This document shows, in pieces, positions 5,916 to 11,790 of a stretch of DNA of 64,000 nt; position 1 is the stretch's first letter; each line of letters opens with the position of its first letter. The DNA is from Gordonia aichiensis NBRC 108223 (GTDB lineage: Bacteria > Actinomycetota > Actinomycetes > Mycobacteriales > Mycobacteriaceae). The notes beneath the pieces were generated by a model. That model worked only from the letters and a program-made list of their open reading frames with translations. It did no database searches and was not told the origin of the DNA. The stretch covers positions 620,001-684,000 of the forward strand of contig NZ_BANR01000003.1 in NCBI RefSeq assembly GCF_000332975.1, in the 5' to 3' direction. The position numbers and the translations under genes were made by a program.

Positions 5916-6416
5916 ATGTCAGACACCACCGCAACCACCGAGTCGAAGTCGACCACGGGCGGTACCGACAGCTCCAAGAGCGGCAGCGCCGTCGCATTGA
6001 AGGATGCGTCCAAGAGCGTGGCACCCGCGGGAGAGCGTGGTAAGACCTCCATCGCCGACCAGGTCGTCGCCAAGATCGCGGGCATCGCAACTCGCGAGAT
6101 CAACGGCGTCTACGACGTCGGCGGCGCCACCGAACGGATGGTGGGCAAGGTTCGCGAGGTGATCCCGGGTACGGGCACCAGCACCACCCAGGGCATCAAT
6201 GTGGAGGTCGGCGAGCGGCAGGCCGCTGTGGACGTCTCCATCGTCGCCGACTACGGGGTGGCCATCCACCAGCTCGCCGCGGCCATCCGTCGCAACGTCA
6301 TCACCTCCATCGAGCAGATGACCGGTCTGGAGGTCACCGAGGTGAACGTGACCGTGCACGACATCCACTTCGGCGACGAAGACGACGACTCGTCGGATAC
6401 CCCGCGAGTCCAGTGA
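5916..6416 (+). CDS. Asp23/Gls24 family envelope stress response protein
   Basis: First gene of a six-gene operon. The 166-residue protein has an acidic, Ser/Thr-rich N-terminus (1-45) and then the Asp23/Gls24 domain: TSIADQVVAKIAGIATREI, GVYDVGG, the strand INVEVGERQAAVDVSIVADYGV and the helix HQLAAAIRRNVITSIEQMTGLEVTEVNV, read in pieces. Asp23 proteins in Gram-positives form abundant membrane-anchored assemblies that respond to cell-wall stress. AGAGGAAAGGGAA lies 5-10 nt before the ATG. The stop overlaps the next start by one base (TGATG). Confidence 0.92.
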   Translation: MSDTTATTESKSTTGGTDSSKSGSAVALKDASKSVAPAGERGKTSIADQVVAKIAGIATREINGVYDVGGATERMVGKVREVIPGTGTSTTQGINVEVGERQAAVDVSIVADYGVAIHQLAAAIRRNVITSIEQMTGLEVTEVNVTVHDIHFGDEDDDSSDTPRVQ

Positions 6417-6973
6417 TGTCCGATACGACGACGCCTGCCGGCTCGACGCCCGGTGCCGCGGCCGACGACAACGGCTCGCTCGCCGAGCGGGTGGCGAACG
6501 CCGCGGTGTCGGTGCCCGGGGTGACCGGTCTGCACGCGGGTGTCTTCGGAGAGGTCGCCACCTATCTTCCCGGAAGCCGGGTGAGCGGAGTGCGTCTGTC
6601 GGAGAATTCCGGCGAAGTGCACATCGTCGTCGACATCAACCGCGATCTGCGGGCAGTCGCCGACGAGGTGGTGACAGCCGCGTCGCAGGTCGCCGGGGTA
6701 CCGATCTCGGTGGTGGTCGAGGACATCTCGACCGGATCCGCGCCGCAGGACGACACATCACGTGACGTCGTAGAAGGCGAACTCGTCGGGGGTGATCGCA
6801 CCGCAGGGGAGATCTCGCCCGGAGACGCAACACGGGGCGACGCTGCGCAGAACGATGCCCCGCAGAACGAGGCCCCCCAGAACGAGGCCCCCCAGAACGA
6901 GGCCCCCCAGAACGAGGCCCAGCACAACGACGGCACTTCAACTCGATCAACGAAGGTGAACAACGATGATTAA
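6416..6973 (+). CDS. Asp23/Gls24-like protein with a QNEAP repeat tail
   Basis: A 185-residue protein. Residues about 20-105 form an Asp23/Gls24-like domain (LAERVANAAVSVPGVTGLHAG, VHIVVDINRDLRAVADEVV, VAGVPISVVVEDI in order). The C-terminal 80 residues are acidic and disordered and end in five pentapeptide units Q-N-[DE]-A-P. It overlaps the upstream Gls24 gene and the downstream DUF2273-like gene. The soluble tail may be a spacer or interaction segment; no membrane segment is present, so it presumably depends on the membrane partners of the operon. Confidence 0.75.
   Translation: MSDTTTPAGSTPGAAADDNGSLAERVANAAVSVPGVTGLHAGVFGEVATYLPGSRVSGVRLSENSGEVHIVVDINRDLRAVADEVVTAASQVAGVPISVVVEDISTGSAPQDDTSRDVVEGELVGGDRTAGEISPGDATRGDAAQNDAPQNEAPQNEAPQNEAPQNEAQHNDGTSTRSTKVNNDD
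6848..6922 (+). repeat. Five 15-bp tandem repeats coding QN[D/E]AP
   Basis: Units of CAGAACGAGGCCCCC, in frame. The three central copies are identical, and the outer two differ in one or a few bases. The identity suggests recent slippage expansion and likely length variation between strains. Confidence 0.9.
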
Positions 6974-7148
6974 CAACGCGGTGGTCGGCCTCATCGTCGG
7001 ATTGCTCCTGGCAATCGCGGCGACGACCGGCGGGTTCAGTGGTTTCATCCTGGCCATCGTTCTCGGAGCGGTGGGTCTGGTGATCGGCCTGCACCGTGAC
7101 GGTGTTCTCGACCTCGGCCGACTGCTGAAGAGCAGGAACCGTGGCTGA
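6966..7148 (+). CDS. DUF2273-like small membrane protein
   Basis: A 60-residue protein with two hydrophobic segments (about 3-20 and 24-43, glycine-rich, separated by GGFSG) and a short basic tail. Size, two-helix layout and position between Gls24 genes match the DUF2273 (GlsB-like) proteins found in firmicute asp23/amaP operons. It probably helps to recruit the soluble Gls24 proteins to the membrane. The start overlaps the previous gene by 8 bp; AAGGTG precedes the ATG. Confidence 0.7.
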   Translation: MINNAVVGLIVGLLLAIAATTGGFSGFILAIVLGAVGLVIGLHRDGVLDLGRLLKSRNRG

Positions 7149-7713
7149 TGCGGTGACGGTCACCCGCGGCGACGTGAGCGCCGCGGCCGTCGGCACGGCA
7201 GCGCGAGCGTTGTCGCCGGAGGCCGCGGGCTCATCCGACCCGGGATCGCGCGGGCGCCTGACGCTCGACGACCGCGTCGGCGAGAAGATCGCCGAGCGGT
7301 CGGCGCTCGACGTGGACAGGGTGATCGAGTCAGACGGAAAGGGTGGCTCGGTACTCAACGCGATCAATCCGCTCTCCGGCGGGTATCCGTCCGCAACGAC
7401 GGATATGTCGCAGACCGCACCGGTCGTCACACTCACGATCGCGGTGAGTTGGCCGTGTGCTGTCGCTGCGGTGTGCGCCGAGGTTCGTGACCACGTCGCG
7501 GACGAGCTCGCGCGTCTCACCGGGGTTCGGCCCTCGCGCGTCGACGTGACGGTCGCCCAGATAGTGACCGGTGCCCAGACGAAGCGCAGGCAAGCCGGAT
7601 ACGTCGAGATCCCCAACCCGGGGGCGTCGGAGAAGTCGTCCGGCGAGCCGGGGACGGAGGAGTCATCCGGTCAGCCGGGTTCGGACAGAGACGCCGATGA
7701 GGAGGAGTCATGA
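7141..7713 (+). CDS. Asp23/Gls24 family protein with acidic C-terminal tail
   Basis: A 190-residue protein with a GTG start overlapping the DUF2273-like gene by 8 bp. The domain starts at LTLDDRVGEKIAERSALDVDRV and continues with a strand (PVVTLTIAVSWPCAVAAV) and a helix (VRDHVADELARLTGVRPSRVDVTV, in pieces). The last 45 residues are Glu/Ser/Gly-rich and disordered. It is the third Gls24-type domain in the operon and the most divergent. The following gene starts within its last codons (ATGA). Confidence 0.75.
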   Translation: MADAVTVTRGDVSAAAVGTAARALSPEAAGSSDPGSRGRLTLDDRVGEKIAERSALDVDRVIESDGKGGSVLNAINPLSGGYPSATTDMSQTAPVVTLTIAVSWPCAVAAVCAEVRDHVADELARLTGVRPSRVDVTVAQIVTGAQTKRRQAGYVEIPNPGASEKSSGEPGTEESSGQPGSDRDADEEES

Positions 7714-8360
7714 GCACGACAGACGCGGGGCCCGTCGAGTCGAAGCCGGGTGAGCAGGGTAGGGGCGAGGCGCCTCGGGTCGAGTCGCGCTCGGTTGCCC
7801 GGGCTCATGCCGCCGACACGCACAAGGGCAAGGTGTTCACTCCCGCTGCCGGCCCCAAATCCGTTGTCTCCGGGGTGATCATCGGCATTGCGTTACTTGC
7901 CCTGGTCGCGCTGGCGATACACGACCTGTTGATCCAGGCGGGCTGGGTGTCGGGCGAGGGTTGGCTGCAGGCCGCTGCCGACTGGCTCGACGGTGCGACC
8001 TGGAAGGACTGGATGTGGGCCGCCGCAGTGGGATTCGTCGTCGTGGGTCTGCTCCTGGTGTGGACAGCCGTAGCTCCGCGTCGGCGCACCCACGTGAGTC
8101 TCGGCGACTACGAGGTCCTGTGGACCCGACGCGGTGACGTGGCACGCCGATTCAGCACGGCCGCGCTGTCGGTGTCGGGTGTCGAGCACGCCACGACCGT
8201 TGTCGGCCGTAGGCGGGCCAAGGTCCTCGTCACCACCGACAGCAGCGTCGACGAGTCCGCATTGCGCGAGACGCTCGACGATGTCGCGACGTCGTTGGAG
8301 AAGCCGGTTCGTGTGAAGCTCAAGGTCGTCACCCGACACAAGAAGGAAGGATCGCGATGA
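7710..8360 (+). CDS. DUF6286-like membrane protein
   Basis: A 216-residue protein with a hydrophilic N-terminus of about 50 residues. Two membrane helices follow (SVVSGVIIGIALLALVALAI and WMWAAAVGFVVVGLLLVWTAV), separated by a tryptophan-rich external loop. A cytoplasmic C-terminal domain of about 90 residues, rich in alternating strands, ends the protein. This layout is that of the DUF6286 proteins that accompany actinobacterial Asp23/Gls24 genes. It probably forms part of a membrane platform together with the next gene. ATGA overlaps exist on both sides. Confidence 0.75.
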   Translation: MSTTDAGPVESKPGEQGRGEAPRVESRSVARAHAADTHKGKVFTPAAGPKSVVSGVIIGIALLALVALAIHDLLIQAGWVSGEGWLQAAADWLDGATWKDWMWAAAVGFVVVGLLLVWTAVAPRRRTHVSLGDYEVLWTRRGDVARRFSTAALSVSGVEHATTVVGRRRAKVLVTTDSSVDESALRETLDDVATSLEKPVRVKLKVVTRHKKEGSR

Positions 8361-8914
8361 ACCGCGGACCCGCGTCGTTCCACCGGATCACCGCTGGACT
8401 GATCGGGCTGATCTGCCTCGTCATCGGGGTGGGTGCCCTGCTGTGGAAGTTCGATGTGCCCAGGATTCGTGAGTGGTCCGATCATCTCGATTCCGGATGG
8501 CCGGCACGGCTCGACGGTACCGACTGGTGGACGGTGGCGCTGATCGTGATCGTCGTCGTCGGTCTCATCTGGGGGTGGTCACTGATCGCGAGCGCGATCC
8601 GTCCCGGCAAGGTCGACGATCTCGAGCTCGCCGGAAGCAACGACGACGGCGAGTTGGTCGTTGCGCCCAAGCTGATCGCCAATGCGGTCGCCGACGATCT
8701 CGCGGGCAACACCATGTTCAGCGATGTCTCGGCCAAGGCTGTTGATGATCGGGGACGCAAGTTGATCCGGGTCACGGTGACTGCGCCGCCGACGTACTCC
8801 TACGACGACGTCGCAGCCGTGCTCGGGCCGGAGATCGAGCTGATCCGTTCGGCCGTGGCTGGTTCGGACGTCCACGTTCAGGGACTGGTCCATCTCGAGA
8901 ATCCCAAGGACTGA
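8357..8914 (+). CDS. AmaP-like alkaline shock response membrane anchor
   Basis: A 185-residue protein with two N-terminal membrane helices (AGLIGLICLVIGVGALLW and WTVALIVIVVVGLIWGWSLI). A C-terminal domain of about 100 residues follows whose pattern (KLIRVTVTAPPTYSYDDVAAVL) resembles a Gls24-like fold. AmaP anchors Asp23 at the membrane in Staphylococcus; the position at the end of a Gls24 operon and the two-helix plan fit that role here. Sequence similarity to firmicute AmaP is not obvious by eye, so the name is positional and structural. Confidence 0.65.
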   Translation: MNRGPASFHRITAGLIGLICLVIGVGALLWKFDVPRIREWSDHLDSGWPARLDGTDWWTVALIVIVVVGLIWGWSLIASAIRPGKVDDLELAGSNDDGELVVAPKLIANAVADDLAGNTMFSDVSAKAVDDRGRKLIRVTVTAPPTYSYDDVAAVLGPEIELIRSAVAGSDVHVQGLVHLENPKD

Positions 8915-8930: not shown

Positions 8931-10349
8931 ATGCGGCGATTGTCAGCGGCAGACGCGTTGCCGTACTGGATGGCGCCGATCATTCCCAACGATCAGTTCG
9001 TCGTCTACGTTTTCGGCGAAGACGACCGAGGTCGCGGCCACAGCGCTGGGGATCGGAGCGAGATCGCCGCGTGGCTCGCCCGACGTGCGGCGAGAATCGA
9101 CGACCTGACCCTTCGCGTTCTTGACGTTCCCTTTACGCTCGATCGGCCGTACTGGGTATCCACCGGGGTGCACTCACGGCAGATCGTCGTCGACGACGCT
9201 GCGCAGACCTGGCAGGAATGTCTTGCGGCACTGGCCGATCGGATGTCGGTCCCGCTCGACCCGACCGAGCTCGCCTGGCGCATCCATGTGTTCGGCCGCG
9301 TCGCCGGAGTGCCCGGCGGCGGTGACGGGCCGGGGGTTGTTGTCGCGCTTCAGATCTCGCACGCGCTCGGTGACGGTCGACGTACGGCGGAAATCGCTCG
9401 CGACTTGTTCGGCCACGCACTACCCGCTGGATCTCGTCGGCTAACCCTCACGCGTGTGGTGCCCGACTCGGCTCTACATGCGGGCACCGCACTTCTCGGT
9501 GCGCTGCGGCTGCCCGGTCAGGTCGCGTCGATGATCGCTCGTGGGTTCGTCGCCTGGCGTCGCTATCGAAGGGCGCCGGTCGAGCAGGGACGCGGCGTTC
9601 CGCTCTCGCGGTTCAATGTGCCGGCTGGGACGGCACGTACGCTGCGCACGCTCACCGTGGACAGTGATGCGCTGCGGATCGGGGGAGCGGGTGTGACGGT
9701 GGGCGCGCTGGTAGCGATCTCGATGGCACTCCCGCCGTTTCTCGGAGCGAGCGACGATCGACTCGTCGTCGAACTGACCGTCGCGCGGACGCCGAAAAAG
9801 TGGGTGCGCAACAACTTTCGCAATGTCGGTGTGGATCTGCATGTCGACCAACCGAATCTGGCCCAGCGGGCACGCCTCATCGCCGACGACATCGCAGCCG
9901 CCCGGCGCGCTGACGACGACCCGACCCGTGTCGCATCGCGCGCTGCGACCGCTGCCACGCCCGCTTTCCTCACACGCTGGGGCATAGGTCGATTCGACCC
10001 GACAGCGGTCCCCGAGCGGGTCACCGGGTTCACCGTCGTGTCGTCGGTGAACCGGGGTGCGGACGATCTGGCACTTGACGGCAGGCCGGTGCTCGCGACG
10101 ACCGGGTTCCCGGCGCTGTCACCCGCGCAGGGGCTGACGCACGGTGTGCACGGGATCGGCAATCGTGTCACGATCTCGCTGACCACCGCCCCCGGTGTCT
10201 TTCCCGACGTCGACGGCTACCTCGCCTCGTTGTCCGCAGCGATCGACGAACTCGCCGCGTGCGGAGCCGATGACGCGATCAGAGTTGGTCGTGCGGAGCC
10301 CGCGACGGATCGTGACCGCTGGGAAGGGAATTCCGCGAGCCGCGGGTGA
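8931..10349 (+). CDS. WS/DGAT-like acyltransferase domain protein
   Basis: A 472-residue protein laid out like the wax-ester synthase / diacylglycerol acyltransferase (WSD1) family: an N-terminal condensation-like half with AWRIHVFG and SHALGDGR (residues 143-150), and a C-terminal half with LVVELTVARTPKKWVRNNFRNVG. The catalytic HHxxxDG motif is reduced to SHxxxDG: the second His (H144), Asp148 and Gly149 remain and the first His is Ser. Family members make storage lipids at the membrane. Here the exact reaction is uncertain. It follows the Gls24 operon by 16 bp and may be co-transcribed. Its 3' end overlaps the convergent repeat-protein gene by 71 bp. Confidence 0.7.
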   Translation: MRRLSAADALPYWMAPIIPNDQFVVYVFGEDDRGRGHSAGDRSEIAAWLARRAARIDDLTLRVLDVPFTLDRPYWVSTGVHSRQIVVDDAAQTWQECLAALADRMSVPLDPTELAWRIHVFGRVAGVPGGGDGPGVVVALQISHALGDGRRTAEIARDLFGHALPAGSRRLTLTRVVPDSALHAGTALLGALRLPGQVASMIARGFVAWRRYRRAPVEQGRGVPLSRFNVPAGTARTLRTLTVDSDALRIGGAGVTVGALVAISMALPPFLGASDDRLVVELTVARTPKKWVRNNFRNVGVDLHVDQPNLAQRARLIADDIAAARRADDDPTRVASRAATAATPAFLTRWGIGRFDPTAVPERVTGFTVVSSVNRGADDLALDGRPVLATTGFPALSPAQGLTHGVHGIGNRVTISLTTAPGVFPDVDGYLASLSAAIDELAACGADDAIRVGRAEPATDRDRWEGNSASRG

Positions 10350-11193
10350 GGCGCTTGGGCAATCGGTCGGCGAGGCCGCCGAGCGGTGCCACGGTCTGAT
10401 TGAGCAGGTCGACGGTGTCGGCCAGTTCGTGGACGGTGTCCTGCATGGCGATCAGATTCGGTGCGAGTGTCGCGATGACCTCGGTCAGTTCGGTGATCCG
10501 ATCGAGTGTGCCGCCGGGGGTGATCGCGCGTTCGACTGCGCCGTCCTCGCCGACGAGTTGATCGAGCAGGCCCCCGTCGGTGGCGAGCCTGTCGAGCGCG
10601 CCCCCGGGTTCGGTCGCCTTGTCCAGGAGACCGCCCGGCGCGGTGAGCTGGTCGACGATCCCGCCCTCAGAGGTCAGACGTTCGAGAATGCCCTCGTTCT
10701 CCGTGAACTGATCGACCACGCCTCCTTCGCGGGTGAGCCGATCGAGCGGACCGTCCTTGGCGGTGAGCCGGACCAGGATGCCGTTCTCGTCGGTGATCTG
10801 GTCGAACAGGCCGCCGGGGGCGGTCAGCTTCTCCAGAAGACCGTCCTTCGCCGTGAGTCGATCGACGACGCCGCCAGGCGTGACCAGGCGCTCGAGCGGA
10901 CCTCCGGGCGCGATCAGCCTGCCGAGCGGGCGGTCGGGGGACATCAGGTCGCTCAGCTGGGCCAGCAGAGCGAGAGGAGCCCGCGCGCCGCCGAGTTCGG
11001 CCCCGGAGATGCCGATGGCCTGCCCGATCTCGTGCTGCACGCTCGTTGCGGTGACTCGCGCGATGGTGACCGCGGACTCGGCAGCGGTCAGCGCAACGCC
11101 GGTGATCGCGAACCCCAACCGAAACGGAAGGTCGATGGCCGAGCGCACCTCCGGACGGATGATGCCGACCTCGACGTCACGTTCTTCGACCAC
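10279..11193 (-). CDS. Decapeptide-repeat protein of unknown function
   Basis: A 304-residue protein I do not recognise. Residues 17-60 are moderately hydrophobic. Residues 94-233 are fourteen consecutive 10-residue units with no insertion or deletion, consensus T-A-x-G-G-x-[LV]-[DE]-[RKQ]-[LI]; residues 84-93 look like a degenerate extra copy. A helical C-terminal segment (TELTEVIATLAPNLIAMQ and on) and a basic tail follow. The unit is not a pentapeptide, TPR or LRR repeat. A hydrophobic position every ten residues after a GG turn suggests a solenoid or helix-turn array. The GTG start is supported by a TAGGGT hexamer 6 nt upstream. Confidence 0.75.
   Translation of the reverse strand: MVEERDVEVGIIRPEVRSAIDLPFRLGFAITGVALTAAESAVTIARVTATSVQHEIGQAIGISGAELGGARAPLALLAQLSDLMSPDRPLGRLIAPGGPLERLVTPGGVVDRLTAKDGLLEKLTAPGGLFDQITDENGILVRLTAKDGPLDRLTREGGVVDQFTENEGILERLTSEGGIVDQLTAPGGLLDKATEPGGALDRLATDGGLLDQLVGEDGAVERAITPGGTLDRITELTEVIATLAPNLIAMQDTVHELADTVDLLNQTVAPLGGLADRLPKRLTRGSRNSLPSGHDPSRAPHDQL
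10495..10914 (-). repeat. Fourteen 30-bp coding repeats (decapeptide array)
   Basis: In-frame 30-bp units encoding [TIV][ATE]xxG[x][LV][DE][RKQ][LIAF]. The units have diverged at DNA level, so this is an old expansion kept by selection, unlike the fresh QNEAP repeat near 6.9 kb. Confidence 0.85.
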
Positions 11194-11199
11194 GACGAC

Positions 11200-11205
11200 A
11201 CCCTA
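11200..11205 (-). promoter_or_regulatory. Leaderless -10 (TAGGGT) of the decapeptide-repeat gene
   Basis: Six nt separate it from the GTG start. It lies inside the end of the upstream glycosylase gene. Confidence 0.45.
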
Positions 11206-11790
11206 GCCTTTCACAGACGTCTGATTGTCGGCTTTCGCCGCGGCCTTGGCGGCCTTCTTGAAGTCCCGGACCTTCTGTAGCGAGTCGGGATCGGTCACGT
11301 CGGCCACGGACCGAAAACCCTTCTTCCCGTAGTCGCCGACCACCGACGTCCACCCCTTCGGGGTGACATCGAGTTGCTTTGCGAGCAGCGCGGTGAAGAT
11401 CTTGGCCTTCTGATCCCCGAAGCCCGGCAGTGCGCGGACTCTGTCGAAGAGTTCCTTGCCGGTGGTCGCGGTCGTCCACAGTTGTGCGGTGTCGCCGTCG
11501 TATTCGTCGACGATGACGCGCGCGAGAGCCTGCACCCGTGCGGCCATGGAGCGGCCGTAGCGATGGATCGCCGGCGGTGTCGCGCAGAGGTCGGCGAAGG
11601 CATCGGGCTCGGCGTCGGCGATGGCAACCGGGTCGAGCGAACCGAACCTGTCGCGGATCTTCGCCGGACCGGCGAACGCCCGCTCCATGGGGAACTGTTG
11701 GTCGAGCAGCATCCCGGTCAACAGAGCAAAGGGGTCGGTCGACAACAGCTCGTCCGCCGCGGGGTCCTGGGCAATCTGCAGTTTTGCCAT
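11203..11790 (-). CDS. HhH-GPD-type base-excision DNA repair protein
   Basis: A 195-residue protein. It is short for a DNA glycosylase but typical of the actinobacterial HhH-GPD repair protein group. Features are the N-terminal TDPFALLTGMLLDQQFPMERAF helix pair, the helix-hairpin-helix LFDRVRALPGFGDQKAKIFTALL (residues about 113-135) and GWTSVVGDYG, followed by a Lys/Ala-rich tail. It would excise damaged bases; which lesion is unknown. The start is supported by TAGGAT 6 nt upstream. It is divergent from the next gene, with only 32 bp between the two start codons. Confidence 0.85.
   Translation of the reverse strand: MAKLQIAQDPAADELLSTDPFALLTGMLLDQQFPMERAFAGPAKIRDRFGSLDPVAIADAEPDAFADLCATPPAIHRYGRSMAARVQALARVIVDEYDGDTAQLWTTATTGKELFDRVRALPGFGDQKAKIFTALLAKQLDVTPKGWTSVVGDYGKKGFRSVADVTDPDSLQKVRDFKKAAKAAAKADNQTSVKG

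What the first reader, a model, noticed from the sequence alone, without database searches (positions are those of the whole stretch)
10495..10914. Fourteen uninterrupted decapeptide repeats in a protein of unknown family
Fourteen 10-residue units with consensus T-A-x-G-G-x-L-D-R-L follow each other with no length change, yet their DNA has diverged, so the register is under selection. The period and the GG turn do not match pentapeptide, hexapeptide-transferase, TPR or LRR repeats. This may be a distinct solenoid or coiled rod, flanked by a hydrophobic N-terminal region and a helical C-terminus.
Basis: seen in the sequence. Interest (0 to 1): 0.6.

Follow-up and report, generated by a model that had tools for sequence, protein, structure and literature searches.

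The report
Ten-residue repeat protein in mycobacterial relatives
A bacterial gene in Gordonia encodes a protein made mostly of fourteen ten-residue repeats; the repeat rhythm is never broken in 68 distinct arrays from its relatives, including ones next to the virulence regulator gene phoP in mycobacteria, yet no protein database describes the family and its job is unknown.

Summary
A minus-strand gene (10279-11193, 304 aa, Gordonia, nearest G. otitidis) encodes exactly fourteen uninterrupted decapeptides at 10495-10914, plus one degenerate unit before them. The register is under strong selection: dN/dS in the repeats is 0.02-0.04, and in 68 distinct arrays from relatives with 9 to 23 units the array length is always 7 modulo 10. 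There is no match in Pfam, NCBIfam, PADLOC or PDB, and no fold match.

The family has one architecture: apolar N-terminal helix, decad array (G-[LVP]-L-[DE]-[RQK]-L-T-x-x-[GD]), heptad coiled coil, basic LPKR motif. It occurs in Gordonia, Williamsia, Jongsikchunia, Tsukamurella, mycobacterial-type genomes (there divergent from phoP, so M. tuberculosis Rv0756c by synteny) and another actinomycete family.

Two AlphaFold2 runs give one six-residue helix and a four-residue turn per decad, but with low confidence and no reliable packing. Best reading: a modular, membrane-tethered, coiled-coil-oligomerised scaffold or spacer whose length is set by unit number. The mechanism is inference.

The parts
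10279..11193 (-). decad-repeat protein gene, 304 aa, GTG start, stop at 10279-10281
   Evidence: relatives in 26 named genomes; dN/dS far below 1
11017..11151 (-). apolar N-terminal helix, residues 15-59; borderline hydropathy (Kyte-Doolittle 1.2-1.8 over 19 residues in the family) with conserved E39 and R46 inside
   Evidence: (helix, but pLDDT under 50)
10945..10995 (-). second helix, residues 67-83, amphipathic in many members
10915..10944 (-). degenerate first unit, residues 84-93 (MSPDRPLGRL)
10495..10914 (-). fourteen uninterrupted decapeptide units, residues 94-233
10645..10764 (-). most conserved block, units 6-9 (TAKDGPLDRLTREGGVVDQFTENEGILERLTSEGGIVDQL), 92-98% mean identity across species; other units 67-83%
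10381..10488 (-). C-terminal heptad coiled coil, residues 236-271 (L236 I240 L243 L247 M250 V254 L257 V261 L264 V268 L271)
   Evidence: a/d positions at least 90% hydrophobic in 50 of 53 members; helix 229-277
10282..10365 (-). conserved RLPKRLTR motif, then a variable polar tail
11203..11790 (-). neighbour: HhH-GPD base-excision repair-type protein (TIGR03252), 9 bp upstream in the same direction; adjacent in the Gordonia and Williamsia loci examined
8931..10349 (+). neighbour: wax ester/diacylglycerol acyltransferase-like protein, convergent; its 3' end overlaps the repeat gene by 71 bp

Best explanation
A cytoplasmic, probably membrane-associated, modular scaffold or spacer protein. The apolar N-terminal helix would sit on or in the membrane (inferred). 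Each decad would form one short helix, with the hydrophobic positions 2, 3, 6 and 7 on one face and the D/E-R/K pair at 4-5 on the other, closed by a Gly/Asp-Gly turn (helix per unit predicted; packing inferred). The C-terminal heptad coiled coil would join copies into an oligomer (predicted from sequence), followed by a basic LPKR motif. Units are gained and lost singly or in blocks without breaking the architecture, so unit number would set the length or the number of binding sites, while units 6-9 would form a fixed, specific binding surface in Gordonia (inferred from conservation). Shown here: the gene, the register, its selection, the whole-unit indels, the family architecture and the heptads. 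Not shown: location, oligomer, partner, fold of the array.
For: 68 distinct arrays from relatives have anchor-to-anchor lengths of 87, 107, 117, 127, 137, 147, 177, 187, 217 or 227, all 7 modulo 10; lengths one unit apart occur, so one decad is the structural unit. dN/dS is 0.02-0.04 in the repeats, lower than in the N-terminal region. Orthologous units are 81% identical, paralogous units 40%, so each unit has its own conserved identity. G is present in 99%, D/E in 90% and R/K/Q in 94% of units at positions 1, 4 and 5. AF2 puts a short helix in every unit in two runs. Regular heptads at the C-terminus, which also resembles a designed coiled coil. The repeat composition lies on the folded side of the charge-hydropathy boundary.
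Against: pTM is 0.21-0.23 and repeat pLDDT about 52-73, so neither a rod nor a solenoid is demonstrated; both alignments are shallow and the two runs are not independent, being from the same family; AF2 is known to model some repeat sequences unrealistically (PMC11795689, abstract seen). The N-terminal hydropathy is borderline for a membrane helix. No experiment on any member was found in the papers held. No Trp or Cys and at most one Tyr in the five members counted, unusual for a well-packed solenoid.
Confidence: 0.42

Rival explanations
1. The decads are surface-lying amphipathic mini-helices that coat a membrane or lipid droplet, working somewhat like perilipins, apolipoproteins or synuclein, with a hydrophobic face made by positions 2, 3, 6 and 7.
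For: Each unit has a hydrophobic side and a charged side; the apolar N-terminus; the convergent wax-ester/TAG synthase-like gene in nearly all Gordonia loci; few aromatic residues.
Against: Period 10 with glycine in 99% of units and mostly G/D/E/N at position 10 cannot make the continuous 11-residue-periodic helix of those proteins; net charge of the array is -11; the acyltransferase neighbour is not found in the mycobacterial-type loci.
Confidence: 0.22
2. A cytoplasmic solenoid that is a soluble protein- or nucleic-acid-binding adaptor, with no membrane role.
For: Near-invariant units 6-9 suggest a specific ligand surface; N-terminal hydropathy is borderline and contains conserved charges; basic C-terminal motif.
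Against: Net acidic array; an apolar, Gly/Ala-rich N-terminus is kept across the family.
Confidence: 0.18
3. A disordered flexible tether of Gly-containing decads between two helical ends.
For: Low pTM and middling pLDDT; Gly, Pro and Asp at every unit boundary.
Against: Very low dN/dS and exact register: disordered linkers normally drift in sequence and length; hydropathy above the disorder boundary; a helix predicted in every unit.
Confidence: 0.13
4. Functional partner of the upstream HhH-GPD protein in DNA repair.
For: Co-directional, 9-143 bp apart in all 25 Gordonia and Williamsia loci measured; the HhH gene also lies near the Jongsikchunia member and two Tsukamurella-type members (L051, L097, L110).
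Against: Mycobacterial-type and other members sit beside phoP or HIT genes instead, with no HhH-GPD hit within the 9 kb examined, so the link is not a requirement; no DNA-binding family match.
Confidence: 0.05

Closest known systems
M. tuberculosis Rv0756c (gene divergent from phoP), by synteny
   Same: In several mycobacterial-type genomes the gene next to and divergent from phoP is a family member; papers place Rv0756c immediately upstream of phoP (PMC8912993, PMC4038636).
   Different: The Rv0756c sequence itself was not available here. Mycobacterial-type members mostly have 9-12 units (19 in one), Gordonia 11-22. Rv0756c expression was essentially unchanged in a phoP mutant (PMC4038636).
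Known short-period repeats and solenoids (pentapeptide, hexapeptide, TPR, LRR)
   Same: Tandem modular array that changes by whole units.
   Different: Period 10, Gly-anchored, predicted helical; no Pfam match at E up to 1 for the window protein.
11-residue amphipathic repeats (perilipin, apolipoprotein, synuclein; from general knowledge)
   Same: Short amphipathic units beside apolar segments.
   Different: Period 10 with a helix breaker in every unit, so no continuous helix; acidic array.
Decad repeats in Sulfitobacter/Pseudosulfitobacter plasmid proteins, one with a BapA_N domain
   Same: Very similar unit grammar, e.g. GLLGDLTGNN against GLLEKLTAPG.
   Different: Weak similarity (E 1e-3 to 6e-3), Gly/Asp-rich, different flanking domains, other phylum; likely convergent.

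Membership tests
Gordonia/mycobacterial decad-repeat family (described here) | apolar N-helix, decad array in unbroken 10-residue register, heptad C-terminus ending in a V-x-P-[LIM]-[GS]...[LI]-P motif | tested here: met
Rv0756c / phoP-side orthologue group | gene beside and divergent from phoP | tested here: not met
   the window gene lies next to HhH-GPD, not phoP; homology to phoP-side members is by sequence only
TPR, LRR, pentapeptide or hexapeptide repeats | match to the family profile | tested here: not met
   no Pfam family at E up to 1 for the window protein, only unrelated weak hits for relatives
alpha-solenoid | consecutive helices packed into a superhelix with a continuous core | tested here: inconclusive
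   helix per unit, but pTM 0.21-0.23 and no fold match
11-mer amphipathic lipid-binding helix (perilipin/synuclein-like) | 11-residue period without helix breakers | tested here: not met
   period 10, Gly in 99% of units
coiled coil (C-terminal part) | hydrophobic a/d positions over several heptads | tested here: met
   50 of 53 members with at least 90% a/d hydrophobic, and 50 with p at most 0.01 against shuffles
integral membrane protein | clear transmembrane helix | tested here: inconclusive
   maximum 19-residue hydropathy 1.2-1.8, around the usual cut-off of 1.6
membrane- or lipid-droplet-coating protein | recovered in membrane or droplet fraction | not testable with these tools
   needs fractionation or microscopy

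The most novel reading that the evidence does not exclude
The array is a new class of helical solenoid with an unusually short structural repeat, one six-residue helix and one turn per ten residues, stabilised by a ladder of D/E-R/K pairs, used as a length-adjustable membrane-tethered ruler or scaffold in mycobacteria and their relatives.
Probability: 0.2. Interest if true: 0.75.

Novelty: new variant of a known kind. Interest (0 to 1): 0.45.

Why it matters
A conserved family, found in nearly all Gordonia and all listed mycobacterial-type genomes searched and lying next to one of the best-studied virulence regulators of M. tuberculosis, has no family model in Pfam, NCBIfam or PADLOC and no solved structure. 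Its repeat is much shorter than those of the familiar helical solenoids. A single structure would decide whether a ten-residue helical solenoid exists, and a deletion in a laboratory Gordonia strain or M. smegmatis would show what the family does.

Tried and rejected
Chance or artefact: rejected. Plus-strand ORF 10195-11280: lies antisense over the conserved gene and was set aside. Phage origin: no relative in viral contigs or phage records; PHROGs hits are weak and to families of unknown function (0.013 for the window protein; 1e-4 for L051). Defence system: no PADLOC match for the window protein, only a weak 0.016 hit for L051. Known repeat or domain: none. Structure analogues: Foldseek against PDB and BFVD, and VIA-align, gave nothing useful. 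PDB sequence hits were to a designed coiled coil (C-terminus) or not significant. Literature on bacterial decapeptide repeats: nothing relevant. Two anchors (L016, L077) fell outside the array and the mycobacterial anchor was one residue early; redid this with corrected anchors, with 3 proteins left unanchored (L025, L059, L076).

Full report
Observation. The repeats are on the minus strand in a 304-residue ORF, 10279-11193. Residues 94-233 are fourteen units of ten residues; one degenerate unit precedes them. Autocorrelation at lags 10, 20 and 30 (0.35, 0.42, 0.45) exceeds the maximum of 2000 shuffles (0.22). The DNA of the units is 57% identical on average, third positions 44%, and Tandem Repeats Finder reports no array there.

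The gene is real and constrained. Relatives over most or all of the length are in Gordonia, Williamsia and Jongsikchunia (G. otitidis 95% identical). Against the three closest, dN/dS in the repeats is 0.018-0.036, in residues 1-93 0.10-0.15, in the coiled coil 0.013-0.020. In a 23-sequence alignment of the array, orthologous units are 81% identical and paralogous units 40%; units 6-9 are 92-98%.

The register is absolute. With corrected anchors, 68 distinct arrays had lengths of 87, 107, 117, 127, 137, 147, 177, 187, 217 or 227, all 7 modulo 10 (one search was a first attempt with some misplaced anchors). By the same spacing the window's 137 is 14 units, so the range is 9 to 23 units. Because lengths one unit apart occur, one decad is the structural unit. 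In L047 and L048 the extra 50 residues repeat units 5-9.

Family. A profile of the relatives finds members in 65 of 397 genomes of the order, nearly all in the window's own family, and none in two other genera of that family (g24, g27). Across the phylum 14 of 396 genomes have it, and another actinomycete family (f21) has members with the same plan. Tsukamurella has members on records deposited as plasmids. The members read in full share the plan: apolar N-terminus, decads, heptad C-terminus ending in a P-[LIM]-[GS]...[LI]-P motif.

Neighbourhood. In Gordonia and Williamsia the gene follows an HhH-GPD gene at 9-143 bp (25 of 25 loci measured) and usually faces a wax-ester synthase-like gene. 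In mycobacterial-type genomes (L094, L103, L105) and others (L098, L100) it lies next to phoP and phoR, with a HIT gene nearby; the L094 PhoP matches the solved M. tuberculosis PhoP at E about 1e-140. Papers put Rv0756c directly upstream of phoP in M. tuberculosis (PMC8912993, PMC4038636), so Rv0756c is very probably a member; this is synteny, not sequence. PhoP binds that intergenic region, but Rv0756c expression was essentially unchanged in a phoP mutant (PMC4038636).

Structure. AlphaFold2 on the full protein (27 sequences) gives helices 15-59 and 67-83, then a short helix in each unit, then 229-277; mean pLDDT 57.5, about 56-73 in the repeats, pTM 0.21. The repeat region alone (23 sequences) gives nearly the same helices; pLDDT 62.9, pTM 0.23. 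The helix-per-decad pattern is reproducible, the packing is not. No structural match was found. A paper in the library warns that AF2 can model repeats unrealistically (PMC11795689, abstract only).

Mechanism. Positions 2, 3, 6 and 7 are hydrophobic (7 mostly Thr), 4-5 are a D/E-R/K/Q pair, and 10 plus the next 1 are a Gly/Asp-Gly turn. This is inconsistent with one continuous amphipathic helix and consistent with either stacked or flexibly joined mini-helices. The coiled coil suggests oligomers; the apolar N-terminus suggests membrane association but does not prove it. I favour a membrane-tethered scaffold or spacer, at 0.42.

Verdict. Similar decad grammar in Sulfitobacter-type plasmid proteins suggests the motif may have arisen more than once.

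Noticed in passing
window 10279-10349: The wax ester synthase-like gene (plus strand) and the repeat gene (minus strand) overlap tail to tail by 71 bp.
   Followed up: partly
window 6413-8914: A run of small plus-strand ORFs, the last matching AmaP (alkaline shock membrane anchor) below its cut-off; the first ends in a QNEAP pentapeptide array (tandem DNA repeat 6848-6930).
   Followed up: partly
L111 1832-3307; L112 1637-4813: Alphaproteobacterial plasmid proteins with long decad arrays of similar grammar (DGLLGDLTGN..., DGLVGGLLGD...), one with a BapA_N domain and a long DA repeat.
   Followed up: partly
L063 (G004:C1:2073938-2074201): A second stretch in a Gordonia genome matching the decads but with 1 TGA and 4 TAG in frame; perhaps a decayed copy or a chance match to another repeat.
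   Followed up: no
L047, L048, L052, L056, L058 (+50); L054 (+80); L051 (+90): Array expansions of exactly 50 residues recur in several Gordonia; in L047/L048 it is a duplicated block of five units, so five units may be a preferred duplication size.
   Followed up: partly
L110 2794-3594: A Tsukamurella paralogue has a much shorter and irregular array and lies two genes from an HhH-GPD gene.
   Followed up: no
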